A stretch of DNA of 64,000 bases, taken from assembly GCA_949825065.1 (NCBI GenBank), contig OX463852.1:16084189-16148188 (forward strand), read 5' to 3'. The notes below the pieces were generated by a model. That model saw only the letters and a program-made list of their open reading frames with translations. It made no database searches and was not told the DNA's origin. The translations under genes were made by a program, and so were the position numbers. Shown piece by piece: positions 480 through 61,284 of the stretch. The stretch comes from Odontocerum albicorne. Lineage: Eukaryota > Arthropoda > Insecta > Trichoptera > Odontoceridae. The number at the start of each line of letters is the position of its first letter. The first letter of the stretch is position 1.

Positions 480-3400
480 TAAGGCCTCTATTTTTTATTG
501 ATTTATTTAAACGTTTTAATGTTTATAATGATATATAGAAAGCACTACCCTGTACCCTATCGACATATTACAAAAATATTTCATTTATTTACTGACCCGA
601 TGTGCAAATTTTATATTTCAACATGTATCTAAAAGATTGTGTTTCAACATATGTACATCTAAAAATTTGTGTTTCAACATGTATCTAAAATTAAGAAATT
701 ACCGTTGGATCTTTTATGCATATACTCGTACATGCGCCAAAATACAATGGGAGAAGAATTAGCGTTATCGTAAATATCTCGAGTAGTGAATTCTTCTCGC
801 ATTCCTTGACGATAAAAGTACGAAAACTCTCGGACGATTAATCGCGTTTTTTTACTTTATTCGTTCGCCTTTGTAAATTTTTATTCGTTCGCTGAACCCC
901 TAAACTCAGTGGCGTCACGTGCATTTTTTTTATTTATTAAAAAAAAACATTGTTTATAGTGGAAATTTTAACCAACCATAAATTTTCTATTTCTACTGCA
1001 TGTATCAATGTATACTTTTTTTTAAGAAAAAAGTTAAAAATTTAACACTTGGCTGAGCAATTGATAGTTAAATTATTTTTAAAATTATTAGAAAGTAGTA
1101 AAATCGGAAGTGGAAATAAAAAATAATCCTTAACATTCGACATAACTTCGCGAAACAGTTTTGAAAAAGTTATGTTATTTTAAAATATATTTATCCGTTT
1201 TGTTTACAAGTTACGTGACTTGGTAATTTTTTTACCATATATAAAAAATACATAGAATACCTCCGATGAAATAAACATTGATTTCATGTATCTTACATAC
1301 GTTATTTATTATGATATATTTTGTAAAATACGTTACATTAATGGTTGTATAGAAAATGGCGCAAAACATTTAAAAATGAAATATATAAAGAAAATATTTC
1401 TTATAAGGAAAATAACAATAGGATTGTTTTATTATCAAAAATTGACTATAAATTCTTCTTTTATTTTTCTTGTTTTGCATCACTATAAAAAAACACGAAA
1501 GCGCCCGTTATATCATTGAACATTTTTATAATATTATAGAATTTGAAGTATTTGTAAAAAAATAACAATTTTCCTTGATTTATTTCTCCGTCTCTGCGCT
1601 TCAACCCTTCAACCCTTTGTACTCTTACATCCTACCCATGGTTTCTCCCTTTTTTGAAATTCTTTATTTTGCTTAATTACCATGGACAAGGGGAGGGAGT
1701 TGTCAGCTATTTCTGATATGTGTTTGGTTATATTGCTTTGCGAATTCTTTTCGTTAACAGTTTTTTTGCAATTGAGGCGTGCCAATGGATTAACAAAACA
1801 AGTCAAGTGAATAATTTGCTTGCATTTTATAACTTTCAACTTAATTTTTAGCATTAAATTATTCGTTGTTTTTTCTTAATTTACTGAATTACTTTAAATG
1901 TTTGCTGTTTCTTCTAGTCTTTTTAATAAATATTTATTAAATATATTGAAGCAAATCTGACCATTGCCCGAAATTATCTGAATCCATCAAATGTTGTCCG
2001 AAAAATAGTTTTTTATTTCTCTGATAGATGTCATTGAGACCAAACTTCTTATTACGACAACCATACAGCTTCTCATACATCTCCTTCTATTTATCTTCAT
2101 CCTTACCTTTCCTTCGTCCAACGATGCCTTTCTCTGTAGTTCTCTACCACCTTATGCTTGCATTATAAATTTGTTAAAGTCAGTCTTTTGACTGACAGAC
2201 GTCAGTCTTTTCTTTTCAACACTCTCAAACAATCTCAATAATACAATACAAAAGCGCAGAATTTTAGCTTCTTCAATAAATGTGAAATATTTCATCAATA
2301 TTGACAAAACCTGAATAAGAATGAAGAAAAATAATCGAAAACGAACTTCATTTTTAAGAACTTATAAAAAATGTAATATTAAAAGAAAATTCTCAACATC
2401 AAATGACGAAAAACAAACATTAGCGTTAACTTGAAAACGAGAACTTCGGTTATGAAAAAAATCCAATACATTATTTACCCCACACATATTCGAATAAACC
2501 CATTTATTTCTAAAGAAATTTCAACCTTTTTGACATTGCCATCTTTTCAAACATATAATATTTATTTGAAAGCGTCTGAAATGTCATTTGTTTGAATATT
2601 TCTTATTTAAACTTTTGTATGTCAAAAACACAACCTTGGACTTTCAAAAGAAGTAAACTAAATGAAATTTTTATTGTATTGAAAAATTAAGTTTTATTTG
2701 AAAAGGACCTCTGATAAACTCTGCGAAAAGTTCATAGACTTAATGTTTTTTTTCTACTTTGTAAATGTACTCGTATTAAAATTTTTTAGACTAATTCGTT
2801 CAAACAAAACTTAGATTCGTTTAATTTTTTTATTTTTTATTTAAACCATAAGATAAGTGTTGTGATATGTTTTGCTTAAATACCAAAGCCGTTTTCAGAA
2901 ACTTTTTATTCTTATTTTTAAAGACGATGAATTCCTCATCGTCTAATATCTTATTTCTTATTTATTTATTATTTTGTCAACATTGTAATACATAGTATAT
3001 ATGGGGGCTTATTGTTATACACCAATTTTATCAAATAACTCTATTTATCTTGGAAATATTATCATAAATTGTTTTGATACATTACTGATTATTTGAAAAA
3101 CAATATTAAAAGTCAAGTAAATGAACACATTAATAACTAATCTTGAAACAATAGTGGTACAACTAGAGGAAAGGAATTACTCCAAGGATAAGGGAGGGAA
3201 ATAAAACAAAATAAGGATGAAAGGACATTCGTACAAGAGTAATGTAAGACTTTTTTTTCAATTATGTCTTGGATGTAGTTAGAATGGTGTAATTCTTGCA
3301 TTGATAACTCTTGAAAGTTAGTTCCACAATCCAGCCAATTGAACCTCAAATAAAGGTGTGTTAAATGAGGTATGTTTTTTTTATATGCAAAGGATTCTCT

Positions 3401-3890
3401 CATTGCACGATCAAAGAGAACGTCCGTCTTCTGAAAAAAGTGGAATTTTCGCAGATATGTGTAAAATTAGAATGGTTAACCATGCCAAATAATGCCTATT
3501 AAACGTGAAAGCTCATTCTCTGTCTGATATTAAGCCTTTAAAGTATGTTCAAAAATCCTGACAGGTGGTCATACTTCCTAAGGTTAAATATGAATTGGAT
3601 ACATTTTGGAGTCTTCATCTTACCCAACATTTCGTCGTTGGCGTCCAAATAGCATACGTTCCCGTAGTAACATAATGGTAGTATTTATTCATTCTATGAA
3701 CCACCCATCTCCTTCGGATTTATCAAAATGTTATATTGTGCATTCAGCGTCACTTGCTCAATTAAGTGGTTTCGTTATTTCCTATTCAATTTCCTTTGTT
3801 TGGCTTCTTCTTTCGTTCATTTAATTCATGCTCAAAGGATTTCTCTTATTGCCTTATTCACAAATGGGCTTCACGCCAACATCAATCAAT
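480..3890. other. AT-rich sequence without recognisable gene
   Basis: I see no coding frame with family features, no RNA gene and no clear repeat. The frames open here are short and low in complexity. A pyrimidine-rich stretch near 2030-2165 faintly resembles the reverse-strand LINE tails seen elsewhere, but it is too diverged to call. Confidence 0.5.
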
Positions 3891-3892
3891 AA

Positions 3893-4280
3893 CAAACTCC
3901 ATGACCTAGTTAGTAAGACGCCTGTTTTTTATATCTAGGTTTTGGGTTGGATTACCGTTAGAAACCATTTTCTTTAAAAAAGTTCACATAAAGCCTCTAT
4001 AGTATATTTCTTATTGGTTAAAAAAAAAATCGTCTATTAACACTCGCGTACACTAGAAATTTGCAAGTGTTGTCGAATCTTCACGCGCGGTAGTATTGCC
4101 AACGCATGACGATCTGCGAGTTCTGTGCTGCTTCAGAGATTTTAAAACCCGAGTGCTCGATTATGCGACTGAAGATAATGTTATCTCCCGGCCACACTTT
4201 ACAATATATACGGAACGCCAACTCAAGTGTATTAAGTGGCTTCATACGAGCGAATAAATTAATGAAAAAAAATTATTCAT
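3893..4280 (+). repeat. Long tRNA-derived SINE, family 2
   Basis: The head (3893-4000) has the A-box-like CCTAGTTAGTAAGACG and a degraded B box, shared with family 1. It is followed by a separate body that starts with ACTCGCGTACACTAGAAATT and ends near GAGCGAATAAATTAATG. The same body recurs at 5.7, 9.5, 17.3 and, reversed, 25.1 kb. The 3' end is a short AAT/TAAA-type tail. I infer a composite SINE that joins the tRNA head used by family 1 to a different body. Confidence 0.65.
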
Positions 4281-4612
4281 TTTAGGGCCATACAAAGATT
4301 TACTTAATTGAGAGGACGCAGAAATAAAACATGAAATTTTAATTGGTATATATTATATAACAAATAAATTGGTACCTAACAAATAAATTAATAAGCGGAT
4401 TTGTCTTTCCGACTGACATAATCTTAAATACTATGTTCTCATATTTTTAAGAGATTATATCGTTAATTATTTAGTCAGTCAAACTTTTAATTTTATTTTA
4501 AATTACACGTTTTCAAAAAGATGATTTGAATTTAATGTTGGTGTTCTGGAAAACTGACCAAAATGCTGTAGATGGATTATTATAAACTGACTGTTGTATT
4601 CCATCATAGAAC

Positions 4613-4765
4613 ACTTTCATTGTACATGTGATGGACTAATTGCCACGTAGCAATGTCTTTCAACAAACTAAAAGGGTGTTTAATAAACCTTTAGTGAAAA
4701 CCAAGCTGAAAACTTTTATTTTTTTAAACATGGGTATCTTACCAACTTACTCGTAGTTCGCAGAA
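4613..4765 (-). repeat. tRNA-derived SINE, family 1, B box deleted
   Basis: The 3' body (TTCATTGTAC..., then AATTGCCACGTAGCAATGTC and the AAAACCAAGCTGAAAAC block) matches the copies at 37.1 and 55.4 kb. The head is shortened: it jumps from the linker to CTTACCAACTT, so the B-box segment is missing. One copy of the octamer TACTCGTA lies in the head. Confidence 0.6.
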
Positions 4766-5635: not shown

Positions 5636-5639
5636 GGGC

Positions 5640-5965: not shown

Positions 5966-6614
5966 TAAGATTATATAAAGGCTTTGATGATAGAAACAGA
6001 TTTGCGATGATAGAAACATATATTGTTTCTCAGTTCGAAGAAAACTTAAGCAGCTACTTAAAACCATTCTGCGAATTCGATTCAAGAAAAATAATCAAGT
6101 TTACCAATTAATAATTTGAAATTATTACAAAATAGCAATCGCTGAAAATATGTTTAAAAAAAATCAAATTAAAACTGTTGTTTTGACAACCTGATAAAGT
6201 TTATAAATTGGTATACTAGTGTATGTAGTTCTGATACGAACACAAAGTTAAAATTCCAGATACAATTTAGAATGCTGATACGAAATGCATCAGCAATCAC
6301 CAAGTTTTGATTGTAAGTTCACCACAGTGTTAGGGATCCAATACAAGTTTCCGTTTACACTACAAATAATGTTGATTTTCACTCAACGTGTTACCAAATA
6401 AAACATTTTTCGTTTAACTATTAAATAGACGTTACAGTTTAAGTAAAATTGGCAAAATTTATTTGAACAATACCCATTTCTGACATTTGATTCACTTAAT
6501 TTAACCTTAAAACTTCTATGCTTTTTTTCATGAACTTATGAAATTTTCTTAATGGATTGTTGAGTGTTGTTTTATGATCGTAGTAATACTCGTAGAACCT
6601 ACGATTACTATAAC

Positions 6615-8200: not shown

Positions 8201-8929
8201 ACATTACTTTACAACAATATACTTCAGCGCCAAAGACATAAATACTTATGATATAATTACATAAAATTTCCCCTAAAATAACATGCAGATGCAATAAAAA
8301 CCATAATTCAAATTGTAATAATGTACCAAAATTCGGTGCAAATTTTGAATAAAAAGGGAAAAAATCCCTGAGATTTTGAAATATAAAGTCGGCTATATCT
8401 ATAAATTAGCACATAAAGGAAGTCAAGTAAAATAGTTTACTTTAACACCGTGATTGTTGTAAAGAGAAAATAATATCTTGTCGATATGACTGGGTAGAGT
8501 TTGAAATGGGTTAATTGCCTCGTAATCGGAGGGTTCTTACAAATGTCGAAGGAAAACTGATAAATGAACTTACGAGTAAACATCTCTTCAACTTCACACT
8601 GCGGTGTTGTTATAATTTTAGTGTAAAGAACTAAACATGGACGGGTTGGTGTTTACTTAACTTTATTAAACACCATGTTTGTTATTGTATAAGTCCTCAT
8701 CGTCAACAAATTTTGTGTAAGAAATATACGTTCTTGGATTGGTCTTGGACATTAGATGAATTCATAATCAGCAGTATGTTGTTTCCTTAGTATATCGCTG
8801 AATAAAAGCTTCCGCGAATTCTTTAAAATTGGGTCAATTTACGTTTGCTGCCACATTATAAATAAAATTTTACGTATATGGTAAAATCCATTATAAATGC
8901 TTATATCCATTAAACATACTCGTAGACAA

Positions 8930-10496: not shown

Positions 10497-10499
10497 AGT

Positions 10500-11770
10500 T
10501 ATCTCATTTATTGACCACAAATTTTGTATGTAAGTCCGAAATACGAGTACTTAAACACTAGCATGCGCATCCTTACACAAACTTAAATCTTAAGCAATCA
10601 CATAAATAATTCCAACGGTGTAATAATATCTGCAACCACGTTTAAATCATGTCCTAAAATTCCTAAAATCACATTCTATCAGACATTTGCATCAGTCATC
10701 CGCTCATATAGGTAATATATCTGATAATTTTTTTTGAATTTGAAAGAGTTACATTAAAAAGTATAGTTAATGAATGTTATATTTTTGCTACATATTTTAG
10801 CATTTTAGACTTTTCCATGGAGATATCAATTAGTTTGAAAGAAAATAGAACAGGATTTTTTTATGATTTTACCTAAGTGACTTCTAAAATTTATTTCGAT
10901 ATCACCCCTTTTTACTGTCTAAAATATCACTCAAAATTTTTCATCTCAGTTCCCTTCAGATACAATTTTATTTTTAATGAAGGAACCATTCCTTCGTGCT
11001 AATAAAGATTTCATATTTGAATTTGGAAATGTAAAATTTTGAAAATTATTAAACATTATTTCTCCATCCGACGTTATCTTGTGGTTTGTCGTGTCGCTTT
11101 TAACGTAGGCATTTTGTACCCTGTTAAAGTTGTCGCACCATTGTGAAATATTTTCAAAACGCTCAACTTGAAACCTTTTGTGTTATTTCGCGGATTATGA
11201 TGTTATTTTGAAAAGTGACAGTATTCGAAAAGTGGATAATGTGTGGGTAAACAACGAAAATGTTGTAAGAGGAAATGTGTGATATGTATACCAAGATGAG
11301 AAAATAAAGGTTTGAGAGGATATTACACCTTGAACTTTCGTATATTTCTTGTATGAAGTGGAGTGAGCTATATTAAAATAATTCCTGCTGCGCGTATATA
11401 AAATATGTTGACGATAAATTACAAACATGAGGTAAATAGAAGTTGTATAATTATATAAAGATTTTTTTAATGTAAGTTAATGTAATTTTCTAAAGTACGA
11501 ATCGTTTTATACATTAAGGCTAAAAAATACCTTTTTTTATTCATTTTATAAATATCCCCACTCATTAAAAAAGTATGATAAATACTTTTTTAATTTATCG
11601 TGGTCACCAACACTAGTTGTTAGTTTTTATTTGGAACGTAGAGAAAAAAGATATACTTTATGTATCTTATCATACATCATTGTTTTTCACTTTCGTTATC
11701 ATATATCATTGTTGTATATACTTATACTTGTACATTATTGTTGTATTTAGTTCAACCTAGGTTTATTCAT
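10500..11770. other. AT-rich spacer
   Basis: Nothing recognisable was found. A 77-codon reverse frame at 11195-11428 is open but low in complexity and shows no family features. Confidence 0.45.
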
Positions 11771-22039: not shown

Positions 22040-22378
22040 CTATCACACAGATGTTAATATGCAAAAAGATAACCAACCCACTTTTTTCCTGTATTTAAAT
22101 ATTATATTCAGCAATCGAAACATATTTGAAAAGTTTCAAATATATTTTTTATTTAATTAGATTATATTTGTTAATATGTAAAGAGAAAACCTACTTTTAT
22201 TTAACTGTTTTGAAATATTTATCAATCTAAAAATTTGCCCGTAATTTATTTTATATATTTACTTACATACAATTTATTTGATTATCACATTACGAGTAAT
22301 ATGCAAAAAGCCAACCTACATTTCACATGTTTTAAGATATTTAACAAAATTAAAATATTTAAAAGCTCATTAATATGG
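22040..22378. repeat. Degenerate AT-rich tandem array next to the gap
   Basis: A unit of about 120 bp recurs: GTTAATATGCAAAAAGATAA near 22053, GTTAATATGTAAAGAG near 22170 and GAGTAATATGCAAAAAGCC near 22295. Each is followed by an AACC(T/C)AC...TGTTTTAAATATT-like segment. A further related piece appears at 22905-22970. The copies are strongly diverged. Confidence 0.55.
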
Positions 22379-24480: not shown

Positions 24481-24880
24481 GGTATTTTCCTTTGTGTTGA
24501 ATTATGCGCACCACCTGTTTCCATCCCTCCCGGTTCAGGAACGTGTTGAATGCAACGCTTAAAGAGGATCTTGTCCACTCCTTTATTTGTTCTGTTCAAC
24601 TCAGAGGACACCTTTTTGCTCGGATTCCTCAACGGTCCCCACAATAATCAGCTTCTCTAGAGTTCCATCATTCTTTCGAGCAACATGGCAACATCGAATT
24701 ATTTTTTTGTATGTTTTCGAAAGTCTTTCGATAATCTCTAATTCTTTGATGATTAAACGTTGGTGCGCTTGCTGTCCTTAGAAAGCATCCACCTTCAATA
24801 ACACATCTCGAAGGCTTCTATCATATTTCTTTCCTACTTTTTCATCTTCCATACTTTCACTCCATATATTACGAGTACTA
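24480..24880 (-). pseudogene. Second, different LINE reverse-transcriptase C-terminus
   Basis: On the reverse strand: CHVARKNDGTLEKLIIVGTV, then a degraded RSPTRWTDQI-type segment and REGWKQVV-like residues just before the unit at 24.17 kb. It is a separate LINE family (GHV.R...LEK.I..G.V type). No full frame survives, and the reading shifts several times. The two C-termini are head to tail, so one element probably inserted into or next to the other. Confidence 0.6.
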
Positions 24881-25189: not shown

Positions 25190-27560
25190 TTAATCCTATA
25201 CCATATACTTGCAGGTGGAAGTCAAAACGTTTTATCAACTAAGTCACGAACTTCGTCATTATGACACTAAAAAAATATTAAGACTACGTTTATAAACTAA
25301 AAAAAACGTGCATCTGAGTTTAATAAATTTATGTTTTTAGTAAATGTTTGCTATGTACAAACTTTACTTTTATCCAAGTATTAGTATTAAAAATAAATAT
25401 ATAATACCAATCTTGGCTGCAAAATATTGACCATTTTAAAAAGTATCGTTGAAAAATTCGAAAACATCTGATTGTGTTTATAAAAAATTATATTGTAATC
25501 AAAAATGAATATTTTTGGTACTGCTTCATTATTCTTCAATATTTAATATTCTTAGTAAATATTTTCAAAACCCTTTTTCTCATTTTCATAACACAAACAA
25601 TATTAAACACAAACATTTTAACAACGGATAAAAATAAACGATCTGATTTTTTTTTCTTTTAAAGTATATCTTTCATAATTAATGTAAATGCAATAAGCTC
25701 TTTGAGAACGAAATTGTATAATGGTATTATTTTTTCTATCTCTTTTCCAATTCGCATCCGTCTCCGCTTCGCATTTTAAAACTTTTTCTTTCCGTTTGTA
25801 TTCCTCTCAACATTATTTCTCCGTCTCCGTCTACCCGGAGAGTAAGTAGGATTTTTAAAATTACGACTCTTCTTATTGCTACACTAGTCCACACCTGTTC
25901 TTATCGTCAAAGACTTGTGTTTTCTTCGTTCTTCTTAACCGTTTCTTGTCGGCTAAACATCTGGTTCAATTAAAAAAGATGAATCTTTTTTATTGTCAAA
26001 CCCTTTAGATTATAGGAAAAAATTTGCATTTTATGCAAAATCACATGTATGTGCTCCTGGATCCCGAGACTAATATAAAATTCAAGATTTCATAATGAGG
26101 ATGGTGATAGAATTTTAAAAATAATTTATTCGTACAGTGTACGACCTATTTCAAACTAATCAAATAGGCGTAACCACCTATCAACTAAATGTAATATTTT
26201 CAAAAATAAAAGAATGGGAAATAAATACGCAATAAAAACTATCCATGGGATAAATATAAGTTGTTTGAACTAAGTATGTACATTAAGAATAATTTACACC
26301 CCTTGAATAGGGAATACAAACCATAAATAAATATTCTTTAATTGTGAGAGAAGCGAAATCGTGACATGAATAAAAAAATCCTTCTATATACCTACCAAAT
26401 TTGAAACCTTTTGCAAAAAATACTTCTTTTTATAAGACTTGTTGATTATTACTTGATAACTATATTTCTTTTATGTACAATAAAGTTCTAAAACAATGAC
26501 AGAAATCGTCAATTTTTAACGACCACCTGAATAGGTACATACCACTTGATAGGTCATCAAATTTCATTTGAAATCCTCAATTGTGAAATAAAAAAATATA
26601 TTATTCACAAAATAATATCTTAAATAACTCTTTTATTTCTAACTGATTCTGTTTTATTTCGAACGACTCAATAATTGTTTTTATTGAAATAATGCACCAT
26701 GCAAAGAAAAACAAATTCTTAATAATTACATGAATTTATCTTAATTTTATTTCACAGGTTTCACTATACTTAATTAATTACCTTTTACAGGTTAGTTATG
26801 AAGTTCTATCAGATATCAAAAAAAAAGCTGCTCTTCTTAGAGAATGTATATTTTTTTTACATTTTTTCAACAAAGCAATTAATTTCAAGATGAAAATCGT
26901 TGTGAAACGGTTAATAAGAAATGCTTCATAACTTTGTTGCAGAATATTACAAAGTTCTCTTTTTCTTTCTCTTTTGCTCATGTATCTGCTTGTCTTTCTT
27001 CTCTCATATTCTTCGAGATATCTCCCTTTGTAATGTAATTATGATAATCTCAGATTGTAATATGCAGTCTCATTGAATGGGTTGAAGACGTTTTGTTTTT
27101 GCAAATAGCTTTAATATGCAGATTTTCCTTTAGTTTCCCCTGCAATGGAATTGAAAATATCCAAGGTATATAATTAAGAAAGTAAGTAATTTATTGAGAA
27201 TAATATATCTAGTCATAAATGACTAAATCAGTATTAATTTTATATAATTGGAGTTATTTTTATCTGGAATAAACCATATACTCGTAAGTTTCTGATTTTG
27301 TCTCCAAGTACTCGTATTTCCAATAGTTAATTAAATAGCAAAAGCTTCTAATAGTACTTCTAGGTATTTTCAATAGTTTAATTAATCATAGAAATGTCAC
27401 ATTATGAAGTATTTGATTATGTTTCTAGATTATCATATAGTTCAATAAATCACAGAAATATCTAATAATGTACTTTCAATTACTTAATATGTTAAATCGT
27501 AGAATTTACTGATTATGTATCTAGGTATTTCCCATAGTTTAATAAATACACATTAGGTAA
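25190..27560. other. AT-rich spacer
   Basis: I see no gene, tandem array or tRNA-like boxes. A pyrimidine-rich stretch at 25740-25940 (TCCGTCTCCGTCTACCCG) recalls the reverse-strand LINE regions near 54.0 kb but is not assignable. Confidence 0.4.
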
Positions 27561-31720: not shown

Positions 31721-32764
31721 ATCGAACTTTTAAGGAAGCGACACCAATACTGGCGTGTGTATTAAAATCGAGTTATATCCGAAATATATCCACCTCACAT
31801 AAATATAGACATGTCTCAACAAAGATATGGCATTTCAATATATTGTGAATCAACTTTTGAGGAAGTGAATTAAAAAGTGGTGTATTTTTCTGATTTTTTT
31901 TCTTTTTTTATCTGCACTATCAATTTTTAATTTTATAAACTGTAATTATGATTTATAGTAAATTATGTTGCTAGTTTTTTAGTGTTAATATTATCATATC
32001 AATGAATGCATAATAAAAAATAACACTTCCTACAAACACTTATTCTTCTTAAACTGCCTATAGTGATCTTGTTCACAGCTGCCCAGAAACTGATTGTTCA
32101 AACCTCAACCGAAAGTTTTTCGTTCAAAATTCGCCTTAATTCAGATTCATAACGTAGACGTGAGTTCAATGTGTGAACGAGAAAGATCAACTAGATAAAA
32201 GGAATTGCATCACATTTTGAAAGAAGAATATGTAAGAAACAAGAGGAATCAAAAAAGCTTTTTGAGATAATGTTTGAGGCAAAAGATTTAATATTTTTGA
32301 ACCATCCGTATTATCTTCCTTACCTGTTAAAAGAAAAGGACATAAAAATCTTTGATTACATAAACGATATTGTTTTTTTTCTTCTTACTTCTTATGTTCC
32401 TCTCCCATTCGGCGATTGCCAATCATCAACGCTATCTTCATTTTGCGGCAGCAGCGTTGAAAGAAGACATGGGACCTTAATGAAACCCCTCCCGAAAGTT
32501 CTTCAGCCATGAAATACGTATTCTTTCTGCCCTTCGTCTGCTCTCAAGTTTCCCCTGCAATATCAGTGGAATGATTTCATATTTTCTCGGATTATATCTT
32601 CAAACTTTAATTTCTTGATGCTGAATAATACGAGTACTTCTCTATCTTCCAAGATGTCATGATTGTGTACTTAGTCAACCCATGAGACATTCAGCACTCA
32701 CCGTTAACAACACGTTTCGAATTATTATTTTACTTATATGAAATGTTGTGTCGTGTTGTTAAAT

Positions 32765-34855: not shown

Positions 34856-35574
34856 CTTCATAGTTTCTCTCTTTGCAAAATGCAGTTATCCATTTTACAG
34901 GCAGTACTATTAACAGAAATATGCAACTGCAATCGAATCTGATTTGCAGGTGCCCAACCAGATGATTCATCAAATTTTTTTTACACTAACCCTGATTTTT
35001 TCAGGCAAACTAGGTAAAGGATCTCAATTTTTCTTGTCTTAAAGTTTATTTTTAAATACCCACAATTTTTCTTAACGATTTTAAAAGAATTCTGTTTTTT
35101 ATACATGGCATTTTGAACAACACCTTCTAAACACTATTTGAAAAAAAACTTTTTAGGATTTCAAAACATTTGTCATCTTAGTGTGTAATAGTATCGATGT
35201 TTTTTTTCTAGAAACACCCCTGGCTTCAACTAAGCTCAAATAGTTTCTCAATAAATTCAAACGTTGAAAAGTAAACGTCATACAAAGGGCGGCGTGGATG
35301 AAATAACGCTCCCCCATTTTTACGTACATATGGACATATTTAAGCAAAAGAGACTCAACTCAAAGAAAAGATTTTTATTCATTGTGTCTTTTAATCCACC
35401 TGATTGCCTTAAGTCTTAGAATTCAAAAAGTGTTTTTTACTTTAATTTTTTCCTTTAGTAAAGATAAATCGTCTGTCAGCGCCACCGCTAATTTGTACAC
35501 TCTTGTATGGCGTTAACAGAAGAGTTGCTCAGCCCTTTGAAACGACTTTTACATACGAGTATCTTCATAATTGT

Positions 35575-37375: not shown

Positions 37376-37640
37376 TGGTACACTTGATTGCCGCCACGTA
37401 AATACTACGCACTTGTTTGTGAAACTTGTGGTACACTTGATTGTCGCCACGTAAACACTACGCACTCGTTTGTGAAACTTGTGGTACACTTGATTGTCGC
37501 CACGTAAATACTACGCACTCGTTTGTGAAACTTGTGGTACACTTGATTGTCGCCACGTAAATACTACGCACTCGTTTGTGAAACTTGTGGTACAATTGAT
37601 TGCCGCCACGTAAATACTACGCACTCGTTTGTGAAACTTG
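37376..37640. repeat. 53 bp minisatellite, five copies
   Basis: Five units of exactly 53 bp start at 37376, 37429, 37482, 37535 and 37588. Each begins TGGTACA(C/A)TTGATTG(C/T)CGCC and ends GTTTGTGAAACTTG. Only a few substitutions separate the units. No reading frame or known motif explains it. Confidence 0.97.
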
Positions 37641-37876
37641 TGTTTTTTTAAACTTGGGTAAACTGTTGCAAGTTAGATTATTCACTAACTTTAGTTTTTT
37701 TTAACTAATTACATTTAAACAGGAGAGATAGGGCAAGGGAATGCACACAGTTTGCAGATAATTCATCCGTAGTAGCGCAATACGGCTGACAGACGTCAGC
37801 ATTCCAGTGGAAAGTTAATAAAAAAATCGCAAATACGAAAAACATCTTTGCGTTTTTGAGAAAATTTTACTAAATT

Positions 37877-38074: not shown

Positions 38075-39775
38075 TTCAATAGGGAATACTCGTATAATAA
38101 AATATTACAAAATAGTATTAATGATTATAAAAATATTAGTAATAGTCCTTCAATAATTAGAAAGTATTTTTTTTTTCAATATTACGCTATGCATGTCTTT
38201 GTCCTGCTTTTCTAGTCTCGTAATCTCGTTGCAATTGACGCGATCGTCTCTTCCCTTTAGCATCTGCAGCTCTTTTTGCATCAATCTTGTAATTTTGATA
38301 CATAATAATAAGTCTGTAAGACTTTAAATTAAAATAAGTCTTGCAAGAACAATCAAACAAATATATTTTAAAATTATTTTTAACAAAAGTTAAATCCGTT
38401 TCCGTGATGAAACTGCAAATCTTTAATAATGTAGAATTTTAAAGAAACAAAACTCAGAACTATAAACAACCAAATTCATTTATTTACAAAACAAAAGTAT
38501 ACAGTTAATGAGAGTGATATGTGAATCTAATAAATATTGCAATTATATATATTTTTGTTCAAAAGTTAAGGCATCTCTTCTTAATAAATACATTAGTTGA
38601 CATTGTTATTTTATGGCTTATAATGAAATTAAAAAGTGACAGCTGCCAAATAATATTTTCTTACTATAATGTTAACATAAATAATGACTTTTAAATCGTA
38701 ACTATAACAACAACTATTATTACAGACGGGCGTAAGTACACCCAATGTCGTATTGTTGGATAAAATATTGCAATGCGTTATTCGAGTTACCCTTTCATAA
38801 AAAAGTACCTCCATAAATTTAGCTTATTTAGCATTTCTATTTAAGTAGTTTTTTTATTTCAAACATGTCATATTTCATTCAAAAGATGGTATCCATGTAT
38901 TAGTGCAACTTACGATACGAGCCCAAGAATATGTCGTATCCAAATTGGGTTCCAGCATCTAGCAACGAAATAAGCCTATTAGGAAAAAAACATGAATGGA
39001 CTAAGTTACTTTTCTTCGAAAAAATGCTAGAAACCCATTTTGTATTCTATGCCGGACCTTATCCATTCGTTTTAATAGAATTCAGGGGAGCCCCTTAACA
39101 AATGTAGGATTGAATTAAGAAATAAACAGGAACCCCTGAACTTGGTAGTTCACGAACTTTTTGTACGGCAAAAAATCTCTAAAGTGTATGCATATTTCAA
39201 ATATTTTTTTTTTTAATAATATTAATTATCTGGTAATAATGATTAGAAAATGCAATGAATAAAAACGCATTTACCTCTTTTTTTAAAAAAAAACTGATCA
39301 ACTTGAGTCAACTACATTTTACTTCAATATGCACTTATTATATGTTTGTTTATTGCATCACCTTTCCAGCATTTATTCTCTTCACAAGACAAAACACCCT
39401 GATGCTTAACAACTTCCAAATATTTCGGTATCAAACTTGATACATTTTTAAAACTCAGAACATTTTTATAATGAAATTCAATCGATACATAAAATTATAT
39501 AACTAAAAAGTTAATTTTTCAGATAGGTCACACCAAAATAGATAATATGCCAGATATAATTCAATACTATTTTTATTGTTTTTATCAATTGTTTTCTAAA
39601 ATATACCATTTAATATAAAGCTGTTAAGAATATTAAATATTGAATGCACAATTGATGACAATTCCATCGAACCTTTTTTTTTACTTTCTCTCTTTCGATA
39701 GTTTTCGATAGAAATACTACATATTGCAAAAGTCTCATGTACCAACATCCGGAAAATTTCAGAGGTCTTTCTTAA
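38075..39775. other. AT-rich spacer
   Basis: Nothing recognisable. A slightly GC-richer stretch at 39040-39150 has no frame or family. Confidence 0.4.
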
Positions 39776-40832: not shown

Positions 40833-41209
40833 ATGGCGAAAAATTCACTGAAATTTGTATTTGTTAGTGAGATTTGAAAATTCTTGCTGTGTATAAAATA
40901 TGCATATTAATACGAGTATATTAGAACACAAAACTATTTCCGTGACTCATGAATTCAAAGTATTTAATAATTTAGAGCTGTGGTTTCTGGAACCATTCAC
41001 CCTTCAGTGAAAATTCTGTTACATAGGAATCTTCGTTTTCATGTCATCGTATAGTATATGGTAACTTTATTTTACTTTCATTGTTCAAGATTTTGCTCTT
41101 ATACTCATTTATTCGAAATATACTCCTCAACAGATCTGTATTAATCAGATAATCATTAGAAATCCTGACCAGGAGACAATGTACATAGCCCAGATAGAAA
41201 AACCCTTAA

Positions 41210-44500: not shown

Positions 44501-45349
44501 TTTCAAATTTTGCATTAAATATTGTACATTTAATATATAAAAATTACATTAAAATGTGAAAAAAATATTACTATTTTTTAATGTAATCTTTCATTGATTA
44601 ACTACAAATACTAGTGATTGTTTTATTTTTAATTTTATAATACATTTTCAATTGTGTATATTTTTTTAAGTAGAACATTTACAATTTACATCGTTTTATT
44701 GAAAATCGGAACCATAGAGTATGGGTACCTAACAATATTAAAAATCTCCATTAATGATCAAATGTTCTCATTTCTTAATCATAAATTTCGTAAATTTGTC
44801 TTAAATAATAAAACAGCTGCAAAAAATTTACACAGTGCATTCAAATTCTTGCATACGAGTATACTTAAATTCTAAGCTATCATATACGCAATTCCAGTCA
44901 CATAATCATCACAATAATCATATCAAATAACTCCTCATCATACGCTCTACATTCGCATTAATCATTCACTCACGAGCCTCTTTACTCTTCTATTAATAAA
45001 TCGAGAACATCTATAAACAAATAAATAGACTCTCAGGGTTTTGTTTATTATGTAAAATAATTTAACTCATAATAAACTACAGATCATAAAAATGTGTGCT
45101 TCATTACTCCGTAGCATTGCTCACTTGTCTACTACCTAGCAACTTAAGGCAATCTATGCTCTTGTGTTCCAACCTGCGGGAGTGCGTTCGTGACAGAGGG
45201 ACAAACGCGCTGCATTTAGGGCATTAATTGCACGCACGTTCATCACCGCCAATATTTAGCCAAGTGAAAACTGTGGGACATTGATTCCGGACCATTTCTA
45301 CACCCTTACCACAAAAGTATTTATCATACAAAAATATTCAACAGTGTTA

Positions 45350-47739: not shown

Positions 47740-47962
47740 CTATTAAACAGCCGTGCATTGTATTACGCGTTTACGAGTATTATGTACAATTCAATCTAGC
47801 GTTTTTGTTTCTTTTCCGACCAACTATAAATGTTTTTAAACAATCTTAAGAGAAAAGCTGACAGAAAACCTTTTTAAAAAAATCTGAATATCAATGATAA
47901 TCGAACTCGTAAACCCCGGTTGTGAAGACAGGCAGCTTATCATCTAGACAGCAAAGGTCGTT
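47740..47962 (-). repeat. tRNA-derived SINE, family 1
   Basis: TGCATTGTATTACGCG at the 3' end, GTACAATTCAATCTAGCG, GACCAACTATAAATG, GACAGAAAACCTTTTTAAAA, B box GATAATCGAACTC (47897-47909) and a head ending CATCTAGACAGCAAAGGTCG. One TACGAGTA octamer replaces the usual CATTGTA bases at 47772. Confidence 0.7.
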
Positions 47963-53382: not shown

Positions 53383-53469
53383 AATGTTCGAAACTATATT
53401 TTATACTGAATTAAAAATTATTTACATTTTTTATCCTTTTACGAGTATATACGTACCGTTAAGTCGTTT

Positions 53470-54285: not shown

Positions 54286-54289
54286 TTCT

Positions 54290-55265
54290 TCATTGATTTA
54301 TTTATTTATTTTGTCAAAACAAGCTTAGCCCAATTACTTTGAAAAATACAAGATATTAAAAATGAAGAAAAATTACATGGAAAAAAAAAATTATATAAAA
54401 TAAAAAATAATGCATATGCATACAAACGAGTATATACACACAAACATATGATAAACATATATTCACAGTCACTTAAGTATGTTGATGAGTGCTTTCTAAC
54501 GCGCTCAATCTAAGAAGAAAATTTACTTTTGCTTTTGGTAATGTGATATGAAATATGTCAATATCCGAAGCAGTCCCGTTCAGAAGAGTTAAGGCCCTTC
54601 CAACAGGCATAGCGGCTGGAAGACCCGTTCTTGCGTATGTTATTGAGAACAGTTCTTGCCGGCGCAGTCTAGTGTAAATATTACGAACATTTAACGCTAA
54701 TCTTTGTAGTAATGCTGGACAGCTCACAACTTCTCAAACGAGTTTGACATTGTATACCAGGAGACGCAGATCTCGTCTTACGCTCAAGGAGTTATACCCG
54801 AGCATGCCCAGCAGGAACTGAGTAGGATAAAGCCATGGATAGACACCGAACTCGCTCATATATAGAGATATCGTAGATATTTTTTTTTTGTACTTTCTCC
54901 ACCATGAGCGAGTTCTGCGCCCCCACCGGGCTCCAAATGCAAGCATTGCTTTCTAGTTTGCTACGGATCAATGAATTAAACAACGTTTTGAGCACCAATT
55001 GGTTTTCAAACGACTTAGAGATTATCATAACAAATCCTAGAGTTTTATAAGTTGAGTTGCATATAACTTCTATGTGAGGACCAAACGCGAGATTGCTGTG
55101 GAACAAGACACCCAGATCTTTAATATTATCTGTGCGGGGTATAGATTATCTGTGCGGGGTATAGGTATAGATTCTAGTGTATATCTATGGAATTTCAAGC
55201 CGTGTGAGCGATGATACGACATAATTTTGCACATAATTTCTGTATTCTCAATGAATAAACCTTAA
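54290..55265 (-). pseudogene. 5'-truncated LINE: reverse-transcriptase C-terminus and 3' tail
   Basis: From about 55265 down to the (TTTA)n tail at 54292. The deduced pieces are LAFGPHIEVICNSTYKTLGF, LKTLFNSLIRSKLESNACIW (the LVRS.LEYA..VW region after the catalytic core), YPWLYPTQFLLGMLGYNSLS, VRRDL, then SCPALLQRLALNVRNIYTRL and ASDIDIFHITLP before the 3' UTR. One frame change falls in an A10 run (54880-54889) and one TGA at 54734. A 20 bp duplication (55133-55172) lies at the 5' side. The YADD catalytic part is absent, as expected of a truncated copy. Confidence 0.85.
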
Positions 55266-55535: not shown

Positions 55536-55539
55536 GTTT

Positions 55540-58490
55540 CATTAAAACAAATATTATATTTATATGCATTTTTCTGTTTTTCTCTTTGTTTTATGAAGGT
55601 AAAACAATTTTTTTTGTTTTTTCTTTCCTTTCTATTTATCTCAGACAAATAAAATGTAATTCGACTTATCTTTAGTACTTTTGGAATTTAATTAATCTGC
55701 TCAATTAAGACTAAACTAACGGAAATCTGAATTATTCTTTCACGTTAGTATATCCATTTAAATATAACGTGAATTTTAATTTTGATATTTCTATACATCA
55801 TCAATTTATCTTAGACCTGAATTATGTTATTTTAATATTAAATTATTTTTATACTGAATTTCAATATTATATGAGATATTATTAATTTACATAATGTTTA
55901 CCTTCCAGTTTTATAGTTTTGAACCCACAAGGTAGAAATTAAGGTAGTATTTTTCCTTTGCGTTGCTGAAGCTGAGAATAAAAAAATTCACGATTCGTTT
56001 TGATATAAGGTGGGAAATTTTCGCGACATTTGAACTAAATTAAAAACCATTATTTACGATTCAGTGGCTATGAGAAGCGTGCAAGGAACATTCGAGAAAG
56101 AAGTACGCTAGGATTTCGCATGATTTATATGTTCAATACTATCAAATTCTAGACTTTTCGAAAATACTCGATATGCTGAAGTGAAATCACACGAAAAGTA
56201 ATGTGAACAAGAAGAAATTTTCTTCTCAAAAAAGCAGTGTTGTGCAACCGTTGAATTGATAGCTATTAATTTAAAGTAATAATTTCCGAAAGGATTTCCA
56301 TTCAGCCTTATATAGGTTCATCTTTGGACCAATTAGCTTCTCTGAACCAGGGCATTAAATAATAGGTTTGCTGGGTTCGAAATATTCCGTGAAAGTACTG
56401 ACTACTTGCTGGGTTGTTGGAACTTCAAGCCTTAAGCCGCTTTATACGTGTATGTATTTTACTTTATACGTGTTCTGCCCTGCGAGTCATTTTTCATCTC
56501 AAAGTTCCTTCTTCGTCGCTACATAACGTCATGGTAAAAAAATTAACATTTCGATCTTCTAGTGTGGATCGTGCTAGATGGGAACTTATTTTGATCCTCA
56601 TAACAATCTAGATGGCAATAGAATCGAAATAAACTGACTTATTTTAAAGTTTACAATGATTTATCTTAAATAAGCAGATCCAAAATAGTCGGTACTTATG
56701 AACCATTTTAAGAAAATTATCAATTATTGTTAACATTTGTAAATTTAATACAATGAGATCTGTCTTGATCGATCAATATATATTTTTTTTCAACAAAGTA
56801 ATAATTTTAATCTTGTATCGATTTGTCAAAAATAAGGAGTAGCGCAAGTAAAATTGAGTTAACAATTGTTAACTTGACCGTAGTGCAAGTCCAAGATCAG
56901 AATGACGCTTAATATTTTCTGCGAGATAATAGGAGAGGGGGGAGACAGTTAAGGATAAAATACAATACAATATGTGAATTTAGAGTGCCTAAGTTAGTAT
57001 TTTCTTTTCATTGTTTTATTATAATTAACTTCATAGTTAACGTTTCTATACTCCAGCGTATCCGTTTTTCCCTTTATACCTACATTTTCTTTTAAATTTT
57101 TGACCAGTTTCTGAATAATAAATATAATATGTTTCTCATCGTGGTTCATCCTTAAATAATGTTTTCAATTTACACCGTATCCTTTTCGATGCATATGTAT
57201 TTACCTCCGTCATTTTTTTTTTCTCCCAGCAAATTCTGTGAAATCTCGACAACTTCTTTCTTTCTCGTGTTTCGTCTCATCCAAGTCGTGTTAATAATTC
57301 AGCTTCTTCCAAGAGACGGGGTTTCCCGTCATCACAATGAGTTTCATCTCCATCCGAGGCGAAATTTTGCATCTTTTATGGTGATGATCAAACTCGGAAC
57401 GTCGCTTAGCTTTGTCACATTGTTTTCTAGAAATCCACCTGTACATACCATACATACATACTCGTATCTCTGAACGTACTGAAAAATCCTTTCCTTCAAA
57501 ATAATGAATTAATAATTTTTCAGGAAATCAGCAACTATTAAATGCCAAAGCGATGATATTTTTAAAAACACATTCTATCACACCTCCTAGGAGATATTTG
57601 TTCGACGTGTGCCTGATAAGAGAAACTGGGGGCACTCACCCGTAATATGATGTGACCTGCTGGTACAAGTCTCACGTCAGCCCTCAGGAGAGAACCAGGT
57701 TAGGTAGAAGAAATTAACACTGGTCATAAATAGCTATATTCAGGAATAATTCAAAGACAATAACAAGAAAAAGATAAAGAATAATTTTATAGGTTTAAAT
57801 CGATTCCATTACTCTTCCAGTCAACCAGCCAAAAGTTATGCAGATAAGTGCTAATTCCTGGGTAAAAGGTTACAACGTTTTCTTTTCAAAAGTTTAAAGA
57901 CACTTAAACTGAAAATGTTACAAACAAATGAAAAAAATCTCCAAAAAACTGGAAAAAATAAAAAAAAAACATCAACTTCATTTTGATATAACACGTCATT
58001 CATAATTTAATAGTAATTGTTCGATTTCGTCTATTTTTTGTCATTATCACGTCATTAATTAAATTATTTGCTTATGTTATCAAACCATTTCAACGACATA
58101 TTTCCTAAAAGAGTTTCTGTTTTCTTTTTTACTGCATTTCACGCGTATTTTATTGTTTTCTAATGTAAAATAATAATATATATATATGTATACCCGTATA
58201 ACTTTCAAACAGAAACACATACATACTTCAGGCTTCAAAATATTTTTTTATAATTATTCCCTCTCCGGTTTCCCAAAGTAAAACTATTTAAGAAGTATTG
58301 GATTTTAACTCGGAGATTTTTTAGTCTTAAATGGTCGAGAAAGATCCGAAGATTTTTTTTAATATATCTACTTACTCGTAAGCAAGCGTGGTTTCTACCC
58401 GTGGCTCTATCCTACATATAAGGGGTATATTGGGATACTTCCTTCAAAGCCTGAGATGGGGAGATACGAGTGTCTCTTATATGTTTAAGT
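55540..58490. other. AT-rich spacer, no recognisable gene
   Basis: No supported gene. The frame at 57159-57473 (104 codons) is rich in Phe/Ser and has no domain. GCTGGGTTCGAAATATTCC near 56370 resembles a B box without a convincing A box. Confidence 0.4.
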
Positions 58491-58492
58491 TA

Positions 58493-58520
58493 CTAGGTTC
58501 GTCAAAAAGTTTTGAAAGCG
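58493..58520. repeat. mariner terminal inverted repeat, lower-coordinate end
   Basis: 28 bp beginning CTAGGTTCGTCAAAAAG directly after TA. It is the 3' end relative to the transposase frame. Confidence 0.93.
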
Positions 58521-58556
58521 GAAATGAAAATACATTTTTTTTGGGGGAAATCACTT

Positions 58557-59606
58557 TTATTGCTCAGTATGGTCTCCCATAAGATCAATACACTTGGTCC
58601 AACGATCTTCCAACTTTGTTGTCCCATCACGGAAGTGACTTTCTGGAAGGCCTGCAAAATACTCCTCTACGACGGCTATAACCTCTTCGTTTGATGAAAA
58701 ATGCTTTCCACGAAGGAATTTTTTGAGGTGTGAGAACAGCCAGAAGTCAGAGGGAGCTAAATCTGGCGAATAGGGTGGGTGCTGCAACAATTAGCACCCC
58801 AATTCACTGATTTTTGCGATGGTTTTTTGAGCTGTGTGAGCAGGTGCATTGTCTTGATGAAAAATGATTTTTTTCTTCAGCAAACCGGGTCTTTTTTCAC
58901 AAATTTTTTCATCCAACTGGTCCAAAAGGTCACAATAATAATCAGAATTGATTGTCTTACCAGTTTGGAGATAATCTATCAATAAAATTCCTTTTGCATC
59001 CCAAAAAACTGACGCTAACACCTTCTTGGCCGATTTCTGGACACGAACTCGCTTCGGAGCCAAAGTGCCTGGTTCACACCACTCCTTAGCCTCTTGTTTT
59101 GATTCAGGATCATGGTGGTAGACCGAAGTATCATCCATAGTGATGAATCGACGCAGAAAATCCTTTTTATCCTTTCGAAATTGCTCCAAATGTTGCTCAG
59201 AAAGTCGCATTCGAACGTGTTTTTGTTGCATTGTTAGCAAATGCGGCACCCATTGTGCACACAGTTTTTTGAAACCCAAAACTTCAGCCAAAATATGCCA
59301 TGTTGTTTTATGTGAGATGCCTATGGTATCAGCTATCACATCCACAGTCGATCGATGATCTTCCAAAACCATATCCTGTATTTTCGCTATGATTTCTGGT
59401 GTTCATGCACTTTTTGGACGTCCTGAGCGTGGATCGTCTTCAACGCTTGTACGGCCACGCTTAAACTCCAAAACCCATCGGTGAACGGTTGGAAATGAAG
59501 GATAAGACTCCTTTAATACTTTCACCATCTTTGCATGGATCTCAGTAGCCGATAAACCTTCCAAAACAAAGAATTTAATCACTGCACGCTATTCGGATTT
59601 TTCCAT
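58557..59606 (-). pseudogene. mariner transposase, DD34D, with three in-frame stops
   Basis: The 350-codon frame has the normal mariner length. It starts MEKSE at 59606 inside the left-hand untranslated part. Stops interrupt it at codon 6 (TAG, 59589-59591), codon 68 (TGA, 59403-59405) and codon 272 (TAA, 58791-58793), with no frameshift. Recognisable parts: N-terminal helix-turn-helix DNA-binding region, a linker near codons 60-80, the WVPHLLT motif, first catalytic Asp in RRFITMDD, second in IIFHQDNAPAHTA and third in YSPDLAPSDFW, with 34 residues between the second and third. All three acidic residues remain. MDDTS stands where MDETW is usual. No product could be complete without readthrough. 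Confidence 0.95.
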
Positions 59607-59757
59607 TGTTAAAAAATACACTGACACGTCAACATCAAATGACTTGTAAACAAAGAATGAATTAACAGATCGAAATGAAATTTTGAGAACGTTCTTATGA
59701 AAGAGAAAATATTAAAATGGTGTAGAAATTTTGGTTTTTCTACTGCTCCATAGATGT

Positions 59758-59785
59758 CACTTTCAAAACTTTTTGACTAACCTAG
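59758..59785. repeat. mariner terminal inverted repeat, higher-coordinate end
   Basis: 28 bp ending TTTTTGACTAACCTAG directly before TA. It differs from the other end at two positions. Confidence 0.93.
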
Positions 59786-59789
59786 TACT

Positions 59790-60310
59790 AACACAAGCAA
59801 CATTTAATTAAACTATTCAAGGTGTAGAAATGTTGATCAATTTAGATTGGCAATATGTAGAACTAACTTACCAACTGTTTCTAATTTTAAATAAGCCTCA
59901 GATATTGACATCTTCAAAATTTCAAGAAATATTTTTAAATAAAGCATTTGAAGCTTTCTTTGTAATGGGAGTTGGTTGTTTCGACTAAACAATTATTCCA
60001 TGTCCTTTTAAGCTTTTCACTGGCTTTAGACGTTTTCTTTTGTTGGCTTGCTTCAAACAGGGACATAAAAAATGTTACATATTTCTTCAAATATGAAATG
60101 CGTTTCATAGTAACTCCCATTTTCTTCACTTTTCTCATATTTCTTCTGCTTTTCCAATCTTTGATTTTCTCACATGACAATAACTTTCATTAATATACCT
60201 TACGATGAAGTGTCAAAACTAATCAATGAAAACGCTGTCTCGCATCATCTTAACTTCAGTTTTAAAAAGAGTTAATTTTTAGAGCACATTAGAGGGGAAC
60301 TTAGGATAAC
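59790..60310. other. Spacer with an unidentified lysine-rich frame
   Basis: The reverse frame 59935-60180 (81 codons, start MSCEKIKDWKSRRNMRK) is lysine/serine-rich with no domain I recognise. It probably occurs by chance in A-rich DNA. Confidence 0.2.
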
Positions 60311-60315
60311 GTTAA

Positions 60316-60700
60316 AATCGCAAATTGGTAAATCGATACTGTAGAATAAAAAAAAATATGCGTACTCAAAATGAATGATACAATAAACCATCACATTGAA
60401 TTCATTATAACCGGTCGGTGCGCTTTGAATATTGGCTAGGAGAAGATCGCATAATGGTTAATCGACAATGTAGAATAAAAAAAATATGCGTACTCAAAAT
60501 GAATGATACAATAAACCATCACATTGAATTAATTATAACCGGTCGGTGCGCTTTGAATATTGGCTAGGAGAAGATCGCATAATGGTAAATCGATACTGTA
60601 GAACAAAAAAAATATGCGTACTCAAAATGAATGATACAATAAACCATCATATTGAATTCATTATAACCGGTCGGTGCGCTTTGAATATTGGCTAGGAGAA
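60316..60700. repeat. 128 bp tandem repeat, three copies
   Basis: Units at 60316-60444 (129 bp, one extra A), 60445-60572 and 60573-60700. Each starts (G/A)ATCGCA(T/A)A(T/A)TGGT and ends TTGGCTAGGAGAA, with the inner block CCGGTCGGTGCGCTTTGAAT unchanged. Only a handful of substitutions separate them. Confidence 0.95.
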
Positions 60701-61284
60701 GAATAGTGGTGAGGCATATGCGCAGAGAAAGCTTTAGCGATCGGGTACCGAACCAAATTACGAGTATGTTAGCTAAAGTGTGATGACTTGAAATACGATA
60801 ACGGCATATTTGAATTAACAAAACTTCTTCACTGGATTTTCTATCTACGAAAATTTCACATGTTTATAGTATGAATGGATTCCCAAATATGGATTCTTAC
60901 TTTGTGTAAGAAAATAATCATTTGGAGATAGATCCCAAAAAATTCCCGCAATCTGAGACAAAAAAATAAATATTACGCCTTCATATAAATTTGTCATGTA
61001 AAAGATTTTTCTTGCGCAGATAAAATTTTAGGGTCGGGTGTAACAGGTGCTGGCACTTTTACATATTTATGGGATGATCGTCTGGATTTGTTTTGTCTAT
61101 GGTTATCAGTAGGATTCTTAAACTTTTTCAGCGTAAATAAAGTTTTTTTTTTAAAGAAGCTTAATATTAATAATACGTTTTTGCAGTTCAACTTCATAGC
61201 TTCAATGTTATTTTAATTTTAAATGAGAAAGGTTAATAAAGACTTCTAATTAAATAATCCGTGACAGTTTTTTTTAAATTTGTA

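What the first reader, a model, noticed from the sequence alone, without database searches (positions are those of the whole stretch)
723..60766. Dispersed octamer TACGAGTA / TACTCGTA, strongly over-represented with unrelated flanks
I counted 21 exact copies on the two strands, starting at 723, 2768, 4748, 6587, 8571, 8917, 10542, 22291, 24870, 27279, 27309, 32629, 35554, 38087, 40911, 44854, 47772, 53440, 57459, 58373 and 60759. At about 32% GC an octamer of this composition should occur roughly two to three times on both strands of 64 kb. Orientation is balanced (10 versus 11) and the flanks differ, so it is not a piece of one long repeat. It has the form TA-CGAG-TA: a 4-base core between two TA dinucleotides. 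That is the layout of an excision footprint left by a TA-targeting (Tc1/mariner-type) transposon, or of a short genome-wide motif such as a protein-binding site. At 47772 it replaces the usual CATTGTAT bases of the SINE body, so it can appear inside an older repeat.
Basis: partly seen in the sequence, partly recalled or inferred. Interest (0 to 1): 0.75.

Follow-up and report, generated by a model that had tools for sequence, protein, structure and literature searches.

The report
Mariner transposon excision scars, genome-wide
An eight-letter DNA word that is strangely common in this animal genome is most likely the scar left each time a jumping gene of the mariner type cut itself out, so the genome seems to carry roughly a third of a million records of past jumps and of how the breaks were healed.

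Summary
TACGAGTA/TACTCGTA occurs exactly 21 times at the listed places (dinucleotide-shuffle expectation 1.16). The whole assembly (1.287 Gb) holds 381,502 copies against 30,151 for the reversed word. One-mismatch neighbours total 187 versus 178 expected: a sharp 8-mer.

It is a net 6-bp insertion at a TA. At one TA of a high-copy LINE, 88 copies carry a 2-12 bp insert; of the 42 that are 6 bp long, 37 are the exact octamer, 4 one-step variants, 1 unclear. A second LINE TA agrees: 6 of 6.

Its core CGAG is the tip of resident mariners with ends 5'-CGAGG at TA: 14,479 matches to a degenerate end pattern, reversed control 0. Two facing ends 925 bp apart flank exactly that LINE TA. The octamer is best read as the excision footprint of CGAGG-ended mariners, about 349,000 in excess, about 48 per matched pair of ends.

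Unresolved: a 4-nt rather than 3-nt scar, no enriched scar variants, and a 32:5 orientation bias at the first LINE TA (4:2 at the second).

The parts
723..730 (-). octamer scar
   Evidence: exact match
2768..2775 (-). octamer scar
   Evidence: exact match
4748..4755 (-). octamer scar
   Evidence: exact match
6587..6594 (-). octamer scar
   Evidence: exact match
8571..8578 (+). octamer scar
   Evidence: exact match
8917..8924 (-). octamer scar
   Evidence: exact match
10542..10549 (+). octamer scar
   Evidence: exact match
22291..22298 (+). octamer scar
   Evidence: exact match
24870..24877 (+). octamer scar
   Evidence: exact match
27279..27286 (-). octamer scar, starts 30 bp before the next
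   Evidence: exact match
27309..27316 (-). octamer scar
   Evidence: exact match
32629..32636 (+). octamer scar
   Evidence: exact match
35554..35561 (+). octamer scar
   Evidence: exact match
38087..38094 (-). octamer scar
   Evidence: exact match
40911..40918 (+). octamer scar
   Evidence: exact match
44854..44861 (+). octamer scar
   Evidence: exact match
47772..47779 (+). octamer scar; 4 of 5 weakly similar copies align without a gap once the octamer is collapsed to TA
53440..53447 (+). octamer scar
   Evidence: exact match
57459..57466 (-). octamer scar
   Evidence: exact match
58373..58380 (-). octamer scar
   Evidence: exact match
60759..60766 (+). octamer scar
   Evidence: exact match
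54545..54565 (+). vacant copy of the first LINE TA site (inside the LINE copy 54296-55232); other copies carry the scar or mariner ends here
54470..54489 (+). vacant copy of the second LINE TA site; other copies carry the scar

Best explanation
TACGAGTA is TA-CGAG-TA: the excision footprint of mariner elements (DD34D, about 1.3 kb plus shorter forms) whose inverted ends begin 5'-CGAGG and which insert at TA, duplicating it. Shown: the octamer is a 6-bp insertion at TA in repeat copies; CGAGG-ended mariners sit at TA; vacant TA, mariner ends and scar all occur at one and the same LINE TA in different copies. Inferred: on excision the end is cut four bases inside the element on the 5' strand, so both flanks keep a 3' overhang CGAG. 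The two overhangs can face each other as 5'-CGAG-3'/3'-GAGC-5' (outer C:G pairs, two inner G-A mispairs) and be ligated without trimming. After replication or repair either strand gives TACGAGTA or TACTCGTA, which would explain one exact product with no enriched variants. Such end joining, rather than copying the element back from the sister or homologue, would leave one scar per jump.
For: Genome-wide excess. Insertion at TA in paralogous copies: of 15 sites tallied, 5 share the octamer with their paralogue, 1 lies in a TATATA run, 1 is mixed, and the other 8 give +6 (4), +7 (1), +11 (2, mirror copies of one palindrome), +2 (1); control octamers TANNNNTA give 0 in 174 of 258 and +6 in 4 of 258. 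First LINE TA: 37 exact octamers, 4 one-step variants and 1 unclear (TACGATGT) are the 42 six-bp inserts among 88. Second LINE TA: 6 of 6 six-bp inserts among 19. The clear TA-CGAG element ends in the 264-kb sample are mariners beginning CGAGG (by my reading 8 of the 24 TACGAGG); genome-wide 14,479 matches to their end pattern versus 0 reversed. Two facing CGAGG ends, 925 bp apart on C16, carry the two LINE halves of the first LINE TA (9 LINE bases outside the TA on each side), plus three single junctions. Element-end flanks (66) and scar flanks (154) lean the same way from 50,609 ordinary TAs: R at -1, T at -2, A at -3. L014 has an open 355-aa mariner transposase frame related to Mos1. Another resident mariner, CTAGG-ended (window 58491-59787), fits the 3-nt scars TATAGTA/TACTATA: 6+1 of 88 and 1+1 of 19.
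Against: Mariner and Sleeping Beauty are described as cutting three nucleotides inside (PMC7827188) or two or three (PMC2642840), yet the 3-nt scar TACGATA is not enriched (34 vs 39 expected), and neither it nor TATCGTA is among the 88 or the 19 inserts. Orientation at the first LINE TA is 32:5 and opposite to the four commonest 3-nt scar types there (3:20; Fisher p about 1.5e-8); plain annealing predicts 1:1 (second TA 4:2). Left and right scar flanks differ (T at -1 in 23%, A at +1 in 7%), and G at -3 is 17-18% in scars but 0 of 66 in element ends. TACAAGTA, one of the 24 neighbours, is itself raised (28 vs 13.6). A repeat TA tried first had no octamer among its 2 inserts (vacant copies not counted). 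Scars are not denser near elements: 9 octamers in 60 kb around 20 element ends. The three single junctions rest on 9 flank bases each and could be chance. About 48 scars per matched pair of ends is a very high ratio.
Confidence: 0.83

Rival explanations
1. Same source, canonical 3-nt cut (a variant of the best explanation, so its odds overlap): overhangs CGA and CGA are juxtaposed with a one-base offset, each 3' end is extended by one templated G, and the same TACGAGTA results.
For: Known mariner cuts are 2-3 nt; the pairing drawn out by hand gives the same duplex; inserts that look like 3-nt mariner scars occur at the same TA.
Against: It needs extension from mispaired ends every time, and TACGATA or TACGTA by-products are not enriched.
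Confidence: 0.3
2. The scars come from another TA element, extinct or rare now, with ends starting CTCG (or CGAG), not from the CGAGG mariners seen.
For: Orientation bias opposite to the 3-nt scars at the same TA; G at -3 in scars but not at element ends.
Against: No CTCG-ended family was seen in the 264-kb sample: the commonest TACTCG extension other than the octamer, TACTCGAAATCA, comes from one tandem array in L009. CGAGG mariners are abundant and use the same TA.
Confidence: 0.12
3. A functional DNA-binding or genome-signature motif kept by selection.
For: Sharp edges and exactness.
Against: It arises as an insertion at TA inside LINE copies, with Poisson-like spacing and mariner-like target flanks.
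Confidence: 0.03
4. Assembly or sequencing artefact, or simple-repeat effect.
For: Minisatellites near the end of contig C1 carry it once or twice per unit.
Against: 2 of 84 copies lie in arrays in the sample; the contexts are many and independent.
Confidence: 0.01

Closest known systems
Excision footprints of Tc1/mariner elements (Sleeping Beauty, Mos1, Tc1)
   Same: TA-N(k)-TA scar at the old target, with N(k) equal to the element tip.
   Different: Four bases instead of the 2-3 described for mariner (PMC7827188 and PMC2642840, passages); one exact product; hundreds of thousands in one genome. A range of 2-4 bp is mentioned for the superfamily in PMC7913693 (passage), so four is within it.
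Sleeping Beauty footprint TAC(A/T)GTA (sequence recalled)
   Same: Footprint identical to the 3' overhang (PMC7827188 passage); self-facing overhang with outer C:G pairs and an inner mispair, as worked out here.
   Different: Three-base overhang with one A-A mispair; here four bases with two G-A mispairs.
Macrosiphinimar (Apismar1.1, Mpmar1.1; irritans DD34D) of aphids and Rpmar33 of Rhodnius prolixus
   Same: Ends CGAGGCGTGTCCAGAAAGTAAGTGTACT and CGAGGCATGTCCAGAAAGTAAGTGTA (PMC5490172, PMC4678618, tables seen in passages), nearly those found here.
   Different: 'excision' and 'footprint' do not occur in the main text of PMC4678618; not searched for in PMC5490172.

Membership tests
Tc1/mariner excision footprint | Short insertion at a TA, TA on both sides | tested here: met
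Tc1/mariner excision footprint | Inner bases equal the tip of a resident TA-flanked element | tested here: met
   CGAGG ends
Tc1/mariner excision footprint | Same TA seen vacant, occupied and scarred | tested here: met
   vacant in the window, L001 and L014 exactly and in L009, L023 with one change; two facing CGAGG ends at C16:6763101-6764025 (inside not read); scarred in 37 copies. These are paralogous copies, not alleles
Tc1/mariner excision footprint | 2-3 nt footprint as described for mariner | tested here: not met
   four bases; TACGATA 34 vs 39 expected, 0 of 88; 2-4 bp is quoted for the superfamily
Tc1/mariner excision footprint | Scar made by transposase excision, shown by experiment or alleles | not testable with these tools
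   no reads, no second individual
mariner (DD34D) | About 1.3 kb, TA flanks, inverted ends, one transposase gene | tested here: met
   L014:1820-3152, L023:2377-3682; the frame is open over 355 aa in L014, interrupted in L023
mariner (DD34D) | Transposase homologous to Mos1 with DD34D spacing | tested here: met
   PF01359 4.6e-24, 3hos 5.5e-48; spacing of 34 counted by eye
irritans subfamily (Macrosiphinimar) | Groups with irritans in a transposase tree | not tested
   only end similarity

The most novel reading that the evidence does not exclude
A group of mariners (ends 5'-CGAGG) cuts with a 4-nt stagger whose overhangs pair with each other through two G-A mispairs, so that excision breaks in the germ line are simply ligated instead of being refilled from the sister. 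The element then moves almost purely by cut and paste, each jump writes one exact, dateable scar, and some 350,000 scars form a genome-wide log of jumps and of germ-line break repair.
Probability: 0.42. Interest if true: 0.75.

Novelty: new variant of a known kind. Interest (0 to 1): 0.62.

Why it matters
Excision footprints are, as far as I recall, usually studied in small numbers in plasmids or reporter animals. In C. elegans, germ-line breaks of this kind are reported to be healed mainly by copying the element back, which hides excision (PMC13148408, abstract and passages). Here one genome appears to keep about 349,000 scars of one exact form, about 48 per matched pair of ends. High-copy repeats give scar spectra at identical sequence, so footprint length, orientation and repair choice of several mariner families can be read from an assembly alone. 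It also warns that a strongly enriched exact k-mer need not be a functional motif.

Tried and rejected
Binding-site reading: rejected because the word is an insertion at TA. Footprint variants tried (TACGATA, TACGTA, TACGAGGTA and others) are not enriched in 264 kb. Both-overhang products TACGAGCTCGTA (8) and TACTCGCGAGTA (6) were counted among the first 50 of 255 sites of a 16-way pattern (its reversed control had 519); I judge this near chance, and it does not tell the direction of the end. Independent-repair products TACTAGTA 4 and TACGCGTA 2 in 264 kb (expectation computed for TACGCGTA only, 3.9); one TACTAGTA is among the 88. Tandem-array link: strong near the end of C1, absent in the sample. 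No repeat pair inside the window spans any of the 21 sites at blastn E 1e-3; looser Smith-Waterman hits span most sites but mostly score near background. First repeat-TA test gave 2 inserts, neither the octamer. One search printed only part of its output (cut at 20,000 of 37,284 characters). Full-text searches (listings, with passages of ten papers opened) found no description of this octamer as a scar or of a 4-nt CGAG mariner footprint; one search listed 40 of 515 papers, and from their titles they look like chance occurrences in primers and oligonucleotides. The stability of tandem G-A pairs in DNA is recalled; one search found no paper on it. Genome-wide counts of TACGAGTAA and of vacant copies of the first LINE TA did not complete.
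Full report
Check of the observation. All 21 octamers are at the stated places, 11 on + and 10 on -. Chance gives 1.16 (dinucleotide shuffles) to 2.29 (base composition). Among the 1,680 octamers of the same letters it ranks first, and the next two overlap it. The window lies in a 1,287,057,991-bp assembly of 1,241 contigs, at C20:16084189-16148188. That assembly has 190,753 + 190,749 copies against 15,081 + 15,070 for the reversed word. In 264 kb (window plus L009-L028) there are 84 against 6.6 expected, while the 24 one-mismatch neighbours total 187 against 178. One neighbour, TACAAGTA, is raised on its own (28 vs 13.6). So the word is nearly exact, with little sign of decayed copies. Over 26 pieces of 10 kb the counts look Poisson (mean 3.19, variance 2.72), and 2 of 84 lie in tandem arrays that cover 5.6% of the bases.

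What it is: an insertion at TA. Small comparisons came first. The last unit of a minisatellite in L030 has ccgttt-TA-attat where the earlier units have ccgttt-TACGAGTA-attat. A SINE-like copy in L015 has TTGTACTG-TACGAGTA-TACAACAA; with the octamer collapsed, 5 of the 8 listed similar copies have TA at that place (whose output was cut). In a systematic comparison, 19 of 178 sites had a usable paralogue. I dropped the tandem-array loci L004 and L029-L031 before the count, leaving 15 sites: 5 share the octamer with the paralogue, 1 lies in a TATATA run, 1 is mixed, and the other 8 give +6 (4), +7 (1), +11 (2, mirror copies of one palindrome) and +2 (1). Of 258 control sites of form TANNNNTA with a paralogue (1,500 tried), 174 give 0 and 4 give +6. 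The strongest test used a LINE with 3,367 first-look candidates in the genome (window 54296-55232, 40 scored). At its TA in GATATGAAATA|TGTCAATATC, 88 copies carry an insert of 2-12 bp and the reversed pattern has none. Tally: 6 bp: TACGAGTA 32, TACTCGTA 5, four one-step variants, one unclear (TACGATGT); 5 bp: 31 (TATGTTA 7, TATAGTA 6, TATAATA 4, TATGGTA 3, eleven others 1 each); 4 bp: 5; 3 bp: 10; no other length. A second TA of the same LINE gave 19 inserts: 6 bp: TACGAGTA 4 and TACTCGTA 2; 5 bp: 10; 4, 3 and 2 bp: 1 each. The first repeat I tried, another family, gave 2 inserts and no octamer.

Source. In the sample TACGAG is extended beyond the octamer in excess mainly as TACGAGG (24 vs 13.4; TACGAGTG is also mildly raised, 9 vs 4.6). 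By my reading 8 of these 24 are ends of mariners: pairs L014:1820-3152, L023:2377-3682 and L022:5961-6885, TA-flanked with matching inverted ends CGAGG(C/G)NNNNCCAGAAA, and single ends in L013 and L024. The L014 element has an open frame of 355 aa matching Transposase_1 (PF01359, 4.6e-24) and Mos1 in the PDB (3hos, 5.5e-48). Named relatives include Ignelater luminosus (88% over 75% of the query), Cacopsylla melanoneura (83% over 93%) and Uroleucon formosanum (64% over 94%), so the host is probably an arthropod (inference; the assembly is unnamed). The degenerate end pattern TACGAGGNNNNNCCNNAAAGTA has 14,479 matches and 0 reversed. Copies in the rows listed are about 91-99% identical, apart from overlapping fetches of one locus. 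At the first LINE TA, C16:6763090 and C16:6764014 are facing CGAGG ends 925 bp apart, with 9 LINE bases outside the TA on each side; I take them as one element, but its inside was not read. Three more single junctions match 9 LINE bases (C7, C20, C1) and could be chance. Letters were shown for 38 of 66 rows. Flanks of 66 element ends and of 154 scars (repeated flanks and sites near an end dropped) lean in the same direction from 50,609 ordinary TAs: R at -1, T at -2, A at -3, the scars more weakly.

How it most likely works. Shown: insertion of CGAGTA or its complement form at TA; resident elements with CGAG tips at TA; vacant, occupied and scarred copies of one TA. Inferred: excision with a 4-nt 3' overhang CGAG on both flanks. 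Drawn against each other these form two outer C:G pairs and two inner G-A mispairs (one search lists the pairing); CGA against CGA forms none in register. Ligation without trimming would explain why TACGATA, TACGTA and both-overhang palindromes are not enriched. The known 3-nt cut plus one templated base at each end yields the same duplex and cannot be excluded. The best-described precedent is Sleeping Beauty, whose footprint equals its 3-nt overhang (PMC7827188, passage; the self-facing A-A mispair is my reading). For mariner in vivo, 5' breaks two or three nucleotides inside are reported (PMC2642840, passage), and 2-4 bp is quoted for the superfamily (PMC7913693, passage).

Numbers and age. 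Background from the Markov model is about 32,000, so the excess is about 349,000, or about 48 per matched pair of ends; this ratio is an upper bound because ends that miss the pattern are not counted. At the first LINE TA, 37 exact scars stand beside four one-step variants, about 1.2% per site, from LINE copies chosen for intact flanks. The scars are therefore probably recent.

What does not fit. The 4-nt length is unusual for mariner. At the first LINE TA the scar is 32:5 in one direction, while the four commonest 3-nt scar types there go 3:20 the other way (23 of the 31 five-bp inserts used); at the second TA the octamer is 4:2 and 3-nt types occur in both directions. Left and right flanks of scars differ at the first base. 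G at -3 occurs in 17-18% of scars and in 0 of 66 element ends. So repair or target choice may be strand-aware, or part of the scars come from a related family with another target taste. Scars are not denser near elements (9 in 60 kb around 20 element ends). The orientation asymmetry could not be measured genome-wide, because only TTACGAGTA was answered (59,413).

Compared with the known. It behaves like, and meets most tests of, a Tc1/mariner excision footprint; the 2-3 nt rule for mariner is not met. The element ends are nearly those of aphid Macrosiphinimar and Rhodnius Rpmar33 (tables in PMC5490172 and PMC4678618, passages). What is new, as far as the listed searches show, is the scale, the exactness and the 4-nt form.

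Noticed in passing
G000:C1:1-81328, parts read in L029-L033: The start of contig C1 is dense in octamers (100 plus-strand copies listed within the first 81 kb; the genome average would give about 12), and several unrelated minisatellites (periods 26, 39, 45, 50, 67 by TRF, 30 by eye) carry one or two per unit; TACGAGTATACGAGTA occurs 271 times genome-wide, reversed 0.
   Followed up: partly
window 58491-59787 (with its TAs): A second mariner family, ends CTAGGTT(C/A)GTCAAAAAG, with a partial transposase frame of 203 aa (58791-59402, minus strand); its expected 3-nt scar TATAGTA/TACTATA is seen at both LINE TA sites.
   Followed up: partly
G000 LINE TA sites: Repeats of high copy number record footprint spectra of what look like several mariner families at identical sequence, with strong and opposite orientation biases at the first TA.
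   Followed up: partly
L011:1-7134: A 7.1-kb stretch that matches its own reverse complement at 100%; its LINE copy also holds TACGTA and TATGTTA inserts at TA sites.
   Followed up: no
264-kb sample: TACAAGTA (28 vs 13.6) is mildly enriched, possibly CpG decay of the scar.
   Followed up: no
window 61364-61598 and 37376-37642: Minisatellites of 39 and 53 bp.
   Followed up: no
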